Origin: Oscillospiraceae bacterium | GTDB taxonomy: Bacteria > Bacillota > Clostridia > Oscillospirales > Ruminococcaceae | Assembly (NCBI GenBank): GCA_014799395.1 | Contig: JAAVID010000089.1 | Span: 1-48,365 of the forward strand | Length of the DNA stretch: 48,365 nucleotides | Direction: 5' to 3' | In this document: positions 33,260 through 34,331 of the stretch, in pieces | Numbering within the stretch: position 1 is the first letter of the stretch | How the letters are laid out: every line of letters starts with the position of its first letter | Program-made: the position numbers and the translations under genes | The notes under the pieces: generated by a model | Database searches by the model: none | The model's input: the letters and a program-made list of their open reading frames with translations, nothing else | What the model was told of the DNA's origin: nothing

Positions 33260-33327
33260 ATTCACAAACAAGGAAATATTTTTTTAAGGGATTTTCCGTT
33301 TAAGTTAAATTTTTCAAATAAATCAAA

Positions 33328-33984
33328 ATTTAACGTAAAGTCTTACAGCTAAAAAAACGGGATTCCTAAGGGGCTTGCCCCTTAGGCGGAGTGCAGAGGC
33401 AGAGCCTCTGCGCAGGTTTGGGCGGCAGCCCAAAACGCCGTGCGAAGCACGGCTGTTGCGCACGCAGTGCGCAACGCGGCGCGTAGCGCCGAGCCCCCAC
33501 AAGCGCTAAAAGGGTTTGGGTAAAAACAAGAGTTTTTCCCCAAATCAAGAATTTTGCCAACAGGCAAAATTCTTGATCAATCACTTTTTTCTGCCGGGGG
33601 CAGAAAAAAGTGATCCCCGCTCCAAGCACGACTATACAAGGAGAGCAACTTCAAGCCGACTGAATTATCGGCTATCTGCAACGCCGTATACTGGCTCAAA
33701 GCGCGGTTGAGAAAATATGCCCCGGCATATTTTCTCAATAGTCGACGATTACGCCTTACGGCGCAATCGCCGATGCGGAGCTCTGCTCCGCACCTCGCGG
33801 GTGGAAAACGTGGCACTGGTGTCCTTGTTTTCCCCCAGACCCCTTTAGCGCTCTTTTTGTTTTTGCCGCTTCGCGGCGTTCCGGGCTCCGCCCGGACCCG
33901 GCAAGGGCTCTGCCCTTGCATTCCGCCAAAGGGGCTTGCCCCTTTGGAATCCCGATTTTTTAGCCGTAAGTGTTAATGTTAAAT
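33328..33984. repeat. Hairpin-packed inverted-repeat element, non-coding
   Basis: This ~650-bp block lies between the divergent flgB and trp promoters and holds no credible gene. Its ends are inverted repeats: 33328-33366 and 33946-33984 match at about 33 of 39 positions, including GCTAAAAAA and CGGGATTCC. The arms continue inward with the same hairpins: 33365-33386 with 33926-33947, 33393-33411 with 33901-33919, 33417-33434 with 33880-33896, 33437-33453 with 33865-33877. Left-only hairpins lie at 33455-33475 and 33477-33491. The centre has three long perfect stems (33544-33577, 33580-33614, 33707-33738) and shorter ones (33655-33672, 33746-33769, 33774-33792). Read outward from either end, the arm closes and a 6-7 T run follows. 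I do not recognise a named family. It could be a REP-like or non-autonomous mobile repeat, or a structural boundary. Confidence 0.85.
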
Positions 33985-34002: not shown

Positions 34003-34031
34003 TTGACAAATCTTCCGCAATGTGCTAAAAT
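34003..34031 (+). promoter_or_regulatory. Promoter of the trp operon
   Basis: Perfect TTGACA (34003-34008), a 17-bp spacer and TAAAAT (34026-34031), giving a start near 34038. It lies just outside the right end of the hairpin element and upstream of the T-box leader. Confidence 0.85.
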
Positions 34032-34084
34032 ATTCGTGTAACAATTGAATATGCCCTTATAAACCTATGACGTGGAGATAAAAA

Positions 34085-34331
34085 TGTTTGTGCACTCCCA
34101 GAGAGCGGTCGTTGCTGAGAGTACCGCAGAACGCAGAGCATTAAATGGACCACCGAGGGTGCGAGGAAAGGCTTTCCCGCCAAGTATTTCGCAACGTTAA
34201 GCAAGCGTTAATTGCAGGGATATGTTAGTATCCGATGAGTGCGCGGTCTTCCGCGAATTAAGGTGGCAACGCGGTGAGTTTTTCTCCGTCCTTATGGCAG
34301 AATTGTACTGTCTTTGAGGGCGGATTTTTTT
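34085..34331 (+). ncRNA. T-box leader of the trp operon (tRNA-Trp sensing)
   Basis: A T-box antitermination leader. Stem I closes through GCACTC (34092-34097) with GGGTGC (34157-34162). Its apical part pairs GCGGT with ACCGC, and the specifier loop presents TGG (34146-34148), the tryptophan codon. The T-box sequence AAGGTGGCAACGCGG ends at 34274; its UGGC bulge (34264-34267) can pair with a tRNA ending GCCA, matching the G discriminator of bacterial tRNA-Trp. AAGG and CGG of the T-box can pair with CCG and CCTT (34286-34293) as the antiterminator, competing with the terminator. Uncharged tRNA-Trp would therefore turn on the operon. Confidence 0.95.
34285..34331 (+). terminator. T-box attenuator terminator of the trp operon
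   Basis: TCCGTCCT (34285-34292) pairs with AGGGCGGA (34317-34324; one G-T wobble) and is followed by seven T. Its 5' arm is shared with the antiterminator helix. trpE begins 30 bp further on. Confidence 0.85.

What the first reader, a model, noticed from the sequence alone, without database searches (positions are those of the whole stretch)
33328..33984. Large hairpin-packed inverted-repeat element between two divergent operons
About 16 hairpins fill a ~650-bp non-coding block, and the whole block is itself an inverted repeat. The ends (33328-33366 and 33946-33984) match at about 33 of 39 positions, and both ends point outward with a T run (minus strand on the left, plus strand on the right). 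It lies upstream of both the flgB and trp promoters, so neither known transcript would contain it. It must act as DNA (cruciform, boundary, protein target), be transcribed on its own, or be a mobile repeat. No transposase or tRNA gene is nearby. I do not recognise a named family; whether it is undescribed cannot be told from sequence alone.
Basis: seen in the sequence. Interest (0 to 1): 0.85.

Follow-up and report, generated by a model that had tools for sequence, protein, structure and literature searches.

The report
Mobile repeat packed with DNA hairpins
The block is one copy of a small mobile DNA repeat, found as far as searched in one group of uncultured gut bacteria, that is built almost entirely of hairpins; it resembles known bacterial hitch-hiking repeats but is unusually modular and is often doubled into a giant palindrome.

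Summary
33328-33984 holds 17 hairpins (15 strong; shuffles average 1.6) and its ends match at exactly 33 of 39 positions. It is not unique: the same genome has matches at 40 places or more, and 18 of 24 other same-genus genomes match, against 2 of 16 genomes of other genera. The nearest genomes held (G020, G014) have the flgB-trpE spacer without it, so the window copy is most likely an insertion in this lineage. The basic unit, about 290 bp, has hairpin modules in fixed order (A to J) around a conserved core. The window copy is two units back to back, A ends outward; 25 of 25 distinct inverted close pairs in the loci held are of this kind. In sister species G020 units have 14-bp terminal inverted repeats; the window's only match to these lies at 33319-33332, its left edge. 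An unrelated 370-bp interior uses the same ends. Best reading: a non-autonomous MITE-like family comparable to pneumococcal BOX, mobiliser not found. Arms change on both sides together (77 double, 3 single changes), modules are mixed and some loops flipped, which points to DNA-level shaping. A terminator role is possible, not established.

The parts
33319..33332 (+). left terminal repeat TAAATCAAAATTTA (1 mismatch to the G020 terminal repeat TAAATYNGAATTTA)
   Evidence: only match in the 48,365-base window; 0.28 expected, 22 of 100 shuffles had one or more somewhere
33328..33366 (+). left outer end (A end), pairs with the right outer end, 33 of 39
33365..33386 (+). hairpin A, left unit
33393..33411 (+). 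hairpin B, left unit
33417..33434 (+). hairpin C, left unit
33437..33453 (+). hairpin D, left unit, loop GAA
33455..33475 (+). hairpin E, left unit, loop GCA
33477..33491 (+). hairpin F, left unit, loop GTA
33503..33527 (+). core motif GCGCTAAAAGGGTTTGGGTAAAAAC, left unit
   Evidence: the core is the part shared by the genus copies read
33515..33544 (+). hairpin H, left unit, loop AAGA
   Evidence: read; loop counts
33544..33577 (+). hairpin I, left unit
33580..33614 (+). hairpin J, left unit
33615..33706 (.). centre joining the two units; a similar centre is in the inverted copies L002 and L003
33707..33738 (-). hairpin J, right unit
33742..33773 (-). hairpin I, right unit
33774..33792 (-). 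extra hairpin of the right unit type
33827..33851 (-). core motif, right unit
   Evidence: 1 match in the window, 0 in 100 shuffles
33865..33877 (-). hairpin in the D/G position, right unit
33880..33896 (-). hairpin C, right unit
33901..33919 (-). hairpin B, right unit
33926..33947 (-). hairpin A, right unit (loop flipped relative to 24 of 25 G000 copies counted)
33946..33984 (-). right outer end (A end) with outward T run

Best explanation
A non-autonomous, MITE-like interspersed repeat of one genus of uncultured Oscillospiraceae-type gut bacteria. SHOWN: many dispersed copies; the window copy is absent from the same spacer in the nearest genomes held; sister-species copies are bounded by 14-bp terminal inverted repeats; the interior is an ordered set of hairpins around a conserved core; two units often stand back to back with A ends outward. 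INFERRED: it encodes no protein; it is moved in trans by a transposase that acts on the terminal repeats (the same ends also enclose an unrelated 370-bp interior). The hairpin arms are kept matched, and modules are exchanged, by DNA-level processes between and within copies (gene conversion or template switching at hairpins), with selection for stable single-stranded DNA hairpins possible. In the window it sits upstream of two divergent genes whose spacer lacks it in relatives, so it is most likely a tolerated insertion and not a required regulatory part.
For: Copies: 113 matches that I merge by eye to 40 places in G000, 24 of them at contig ends; a lower bound, as 40 of 89 candidate stretches were scored. 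Genus: 18 of 24 other same-genus genomes, 2 of 16 genomes of other genera with one weak match each. Core scan of public genomes stopped at its limit with 103 stretches; the 80 rows shown are all uncultured Clostridia or Oscillospiraceae MAGs. Spacer without the element: G020 (flanks align up to 33268 and from 33980), G014, and by reading G057 and G058. Terminal repeats: 93 hits in G020 against 7 for the reversed-pattern control, palindromic hits counted on both strands; bounded units of 291-399 bp; unrelated interior with the same ends; window hit at the expected edge. Covariation: 99.1% of 1195 cells paired, 77 cells changed on both sides, 3 on one side. Mosaic: 27 module combinations in 28 units, with six of 36 module pairs linked at p<0.02, within D-E-F-G and D-I. 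Polarity: 25 A-out, 0 A-in, 9 tandem among 34 distinct close pairs. Flipped loops in modules A, D, E, H and I.
Against: No mobiliser found: no DDE_3 in 7 genomes, no terminal repeat or core in the 15 loci around Y1 and DDE_Tnp_1 hits, and I see no terminal-repeat pair 0.8-3 kb apart in the G020 list. Target-site duplication not settled: both outer dinucleotides are TA in 5 of 11 G020 units with both ends. Most G000 copies lack a recognisable terminal repeat: A side 3 of 29, J side 2 of 17. Of 8 orthologous G000/G020 sites read, 4 are occupied in both, so much of the family is old. The window's right terminal repeat is not recognisable.
Confidence: 0.77

Rival explanations
1. Mobile or recruited bidirectional transcription terminator/insulator: in back-to-back copies the outermost stem (CGGGATTCC...GGAATCCCG) runs into a T run on both strands, so readthrough from either side ends there.
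For: Outward T runs at both ends. A-out polarity 25:0. At two sites where G020 has a full unit, G000 has only a short stem with A run and T run (for one of them only the left flank could be aligned). In G005, 5 of 15 classed copies lie between convergent genes against 0 of 11 other spacers.
Against: No terminator called at the ends (the single unit has about 8 bases between hairpin A and the T run). In G020, where the background is large, no bias to gene 3' ends: 7 tandem, 4 divergent, 2 convergent of 13 classed against 209, 65, 43 of 317 other spacers. The T run is missing in the G012 and G015 copies read. One copy seems to lie between a promoter-like site and pyruvate kinase.
Confidence: 0.3
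2. A large structured non-coding RNA made from the A-to-J strand.
For: Strong two-sided covariation. Hairpin H loop AAGA in 102 of 104 H hairpins matched across five genomes, copies with the longer H loop not counted. In G000, 13 G-T against 1 A-C mismatch on that strand.
Against: Few G-U intermediates (3 of 14 non-Watson-Crick cells). Strand bias of wobbles not consistent: G012 has 1 G-T against 6 A-C. Flipped loops. No Rfam match at gathering score; below it only weak hits, best E 0.012 to a Burkholderia sRNA.
Confidence: 0.12
3. REP/RAYT or IS200/IS605-type single-strand element.
For: Hairpins with a conserved asymmetric 5' foot (core) and one-strand loop bias: 70 c(GNA/GNNA)g against 2 flipped of 176 in G000, 21 against 1 of 116 in G020.
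Against: No Y1 transposase in G000, G001, G005 or G012; found in G020 and G015, with no element beside it. The G020 units have terminal inverted repeats, which that class lacks (recalled).
Confidence: 0.08
4. Remnant of a phage, plasmid or a decayed known IS.
For: Repeated and intergenic.
Against: No match at 1e-5 in 50,697 phage or 72,556 plasmid records, nor in viral contigs by exact core pattern. No conserved coding content seen, though this was not tested formally.
Confidence: 0.03

Closest known systems
BOX elements of Streptococcus pneumoniae
   Same: Modular (boxA-boxB-boxC), variable length (67-637 bp), stem-loops, genus-limited, with some MITE features (passages of PMC3049150)
   Different: Here up to ten different hairpins in fixed order, near-perfect stems with two-sided allele changes, recurrent A-out dimers; no sequence comparison with BOX was made
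SPRITE / RUP of S. pneumoniae
   Same: SPRITE has AAAA/TTTT ends and a terminator-like stem; RUP has terminal repeats (passages of PMC3049150)
   Different: Both are typically under 200 bp and AT-rich; this is about 290-660 bp and GC-rich inside
Bacterial MITEs in general (Correia, ERIC, Nezha, QMITE)
   Same: Short, terminal inverted repeats, strong folding, mobilised in trans (PMC10969869, passages)
   Different: No parent IS found; target duplication not shown; interior more ordered
REP/BIME with RAYT (features recalled)
   Same: Arrays of intergenic hairpins with strand-specific features
   Different: No Y1/RAYT enzyme found in this genome; terminal inverted repeats present in G020

Membership tests
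MITE | Terminal inverted repeats | tested here: met
   Clear in G020; left end found in the window, right end not recognisable; eroded or absent in most G000 copies
MITE | Short, no coding capacity | tested here: inconclusive
   291-399 bp in G020, about 660 bp for the window dimer; ORFs up to 114 aa exist by chance or otherwise, but 3- or 4-nt loops and whole modules present or absent shift any frame; element ORFs were not scanned against families
MITE | Multiple dispersed copies and insertion polymorphism | tested here: met
MITE | Target-site duplication | tested here: inconclusive
   TA on both sides in 5 of 11 units; no close enough empty site
MITE | Autonomous IS with the same ends | tested here: not met
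   None seen; other transposase families not searched; type II MITEs share only their ends with a parent (PMC10969869)
BOX element | boxA/B/C module sequences | not tested
   No BOX sequence was compared; named only as an analogue
REP/RAYT | Y1 (RAYT) transposase in the genome | tested here: not met
   0 matches in G000
Rfam structured RNA | Score over a family's gathering cut-off | tested here: not met
Intrinsic terminator | GC stem directly followed by T run | tested here: inconclusive
   Not called locally; formed only by the outermost stem of dimers and by short remnants

The most novel reading that the evidence does not exclude
A mobile system of exchangeable hairpin cassettes working through a single-stranded DNA stage. 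A conserved core with a conserved loop is recognised on one strand; hairpin modules are swapped or re-copied as units (both arms change together, loops flip), and inverted units are joined only with A ends outward, giving giant palindromes by a mechanism unlike ordinary cut-and-paste MITEs.
Probability: 0.15. Interest if true: 0.78.

Novelty: new variant of a known kind. Interest (0 to 1): 0.56.

Why it matters
It adds a well-bounded repeat family for which I found no description in the open-licence papers searched. It coincides with assembly breaks (24 of 40 places at contig ends). It offers a natural experiment on how hairpin arms stay matched: copies differ at 10.6% of left-arm positions on average, yet 14 of 1195 pairs (1.2%) are not Watson-Crick. 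The A-out polarity of inverted pairs is an unexplained rule that can be tested.

Tried and rejected
Rfam families: only sub-threshold hits, rejected. IS630/DDE_3 parent suggested by TA next to the ends: none in 7 genomes. Y1 (6 genomes) and DDE_Tnp_1 (7 genomes): hits, none with the terminal repeat or core in the fetched locus. Exact insertion junctions: among the closest genome pairs (93-94% in the trp region) the sites compared gave only remodelled sites, so the target duplication stays open. Strand-wobble test of RNA against DNA: G000, G020 and G005 have more G-T, G012 more A-C; rows not independent, so not used as proof. Loop-type control: c(GNA/GNNA)g or g(CNNG)c make 92 of 176 G000 element hairpins but only 21 of 116 in G020; the G000 background (8 and 11 of 68) probably includes outlying A hairpins, so G020 is the cleaner contrast (21 GNA/GNNA against 1 flipped of 116; background 3 against 6 of 214). 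That GNA triloops and GNNA/CNNG tetraloops are extra stable in DNA is recalled; only statements on extraordinarily stable mini-hairpins such as d(GCGAAGC) were seen, in passages of PMC10527192. Gene-context test: no 3'-end bias in G020; G005 leans to convergent with a tiny background. First genome contigs pattern was too strict and found nothing. The strict core pattern (1 of 295 genomes) also misses G010, which has copies, so it understates the spread. Covariation control against me: the number of further pair types (17) is below the shuffle mean (20.1), which fits a few discrete alleles. Rows dropped: of 11 G000 loci with unique flanks aligned, 8 were read (L060, L067, L068 were not); 4 of 17 G020 and 12 of 27 G005 copies were not classable; 2 of 28 units (L001 right unit and L026) were left out of the covariation alignment because they lack modules. 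A first count of close pairs gave 26 A-out; with stricter removal of doubles it is 25.

Full report
WHAT IS THERE. The block 33328-33984 is as described: 17 hairpins cover 378 of 657 bases, 15 of them strong against 1.58 on average in 100 shuffles, and the ends match at 33 of 39 positions. As single-stranded DNA either strand folds about 21 standard deviations below its 20 shuffles. It lies between FlgB and TrpE, and the likely trp promoter (34003-34031) is outside it.

IT IS A REPEAT FAMILY. The own genome gives 113 matches, which I merge by eye to 40 places; 24 lie at contig ends, so some are two pieces of one copy, while only 40 of 89 candidate stretches were scored, so others may be missing. 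Among 41 genomes the own one, 18 of 24 others of the genus, and 2 of 16 of other genera (one weak match each) match; here too only up to 14 candidates per genome were scored. A strict core pattern is found in 1 of 295 genomes of the order, the own one; only two members of the genus were in that sample, and the pattern misses known copies in G010. In 13 genus genomes a looser core pattern is found in 8; G020 is missed although it has copies. No match was found in phage or plasmid records or, by exact core pattern, in viral contigs.

ANATOMY. The unit of about 290 bp has modules A to J in constant order: end with A run, hairpins A-G (some absent in some copies), the core GCGCTAAA(A/G)GGGTNTGGGG(A/G)AAAAC, hairpin H with loop AAGA or a longer loop, hairpins I and J. 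The core is the part shared by the genus copies read. Genomes have their own preferred core, e.g. GGGGTATGGGGG in 25 of 25 listed places of G001. The window copy is two units back to back. Among 34 distinct close core pairs (under 500 bp) in the loci held, 25 are A-out, 0 A-in and 9 tandem; they are not phylogenetically independent, and G020 contributes none.

IT INSERTS. In G020 (TrpE 95% identical) the flgB-trpE spacer aligns on the left up to 33268 and on the right from 33980, with about 70 unrelated bases and no element between. G014 also lacks it, and G057 and G058 show the same gene order without it by reading. None of the 29 other trpE loci fetched holds the core, but in several of them flgB is not the neighbour. 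Of 8 orthologous G000/G020 sites read, 4 have no element in G020 and 4 hold different forms in both; for 5 of the 8 only one flank could be compared because the G000 contig ends in the repeat. Two further G020 sites hold short stems in G000. Because G020 and G014 have this spacer without the block, it is not needed there (inference).

ENDS. In G020 the units are bounded by TAAATCAGAATTTA...TAAATTCTGATTTA and are 291-399 bp long. The pattern with one mismatch has 93 hits there, against 7 for the reversed-pattern control, palindromic hits counted on both strands. An unrelated interior of about 370 bp has the same ends, complete in two fetched copies and partly seen in others. In the window the single hit is 33319-33332, at the left edge (0.28 expected, 22 of 100 shuffles with a hit somewhere). 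Own-genome copies seldom keep such ends (3 of 29 A sides, 2 of 17 J sides). Outer TA on both sides is found in 5 of 11 G020 units, so a target duplication is not shown.

HOW IT EVOLVES. In 26 aligned G000 units, 99.1% of 1195 cells are standard pairs; 77 cells changed on both sides and 3 on one side. Shuffles give 19.7 double changes on average, and sliding the partners gives 0-8; the number of further pair types (17) is below the shuffle mean (20.1). Left arms differ between copies at 10.6% of positions, but only 14 of 1195 pairs are not Watson-Crick. Module alleles occur in 27 combinations in 28 units; six of 36 module pairs are linked at p<0.02, all within D-E-F-G or D-I (not corrected for the number of tests). 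Loops are flipped in single copies of modules A, D and E (G000) and D and H (G020), and in three copies of I (G020). Flips and the lack of intermediates fit DNA-level copying or exchange better than stepwise RNA selection (inference). Loops of the GNA, GNNA or CNNG kind on the A-to-J strand make 92 of 176 hairpins in G000 but only 21 of 116 in G020; I recall these as unusually stable in DNA. Their strand bias (70 to 2 and 21 to 1 flipped) is absent in the background (8 to 6 and 3 to 6).

FUNCTION. Most likely a tolerated mobile repeat. A terminator or insulator role is the main rival: it is supported by outward T runs, A-out polarity, short remnants, and a lean to convergent genes in G005. It is opposed by the lack of context bias in G020, the lack of T runs in copies of two species, no local terminator call, and a copy in what looks like the pyruvate kinase leader.

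KNOWN OR NEW. The nearest analogue is the pneumococcal BOX repeat, modular and MITE-like (passages of PMC3049150; review PMC10969869, passages). I found no description of this family in the papers searched, which cover open-licence papers only. I call it a new variant of a known kind.

Noticed in passing
L356:1505-1872, L357:1501-1868 (G020): An unrelated repeat of about 370 bp with the same terminal repeats as the hairpin units, several copies in G020 and no match in the 6 other genomes searched.
   Followed up: partly
L094:3235-3427 and L099 (G002, G005): A different insert of about 193 bp in the trp leader, absent in G010 and G007.
   Followed up: no
window 34060-34330: Looks like a T-box leader before trpE (recognised from memory), yet Rfam gave no match over its gathering score in the whole window.
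   Followed up: no
L342:173-201 and L333:2049-2095 (G000): Sites with a full unit in G020 hold only a short stem with A and T runs in G000, like a minimal two-way terminator.
   Followed up: partly
L005:1824-1859 (end of contig C109): The contig ends with 36 bases identical to window 33313-33348, next to a unit with other modules: a second copy, or an alternative joining of the same site.
   Followed up: partly
L016, L007, L011, L017, L061: By eye, the A end of the repeat lies about 10-40 bases before a likely ribosome-binding site, so the repeat is probably in these 5' leaders.
   Followed up: no
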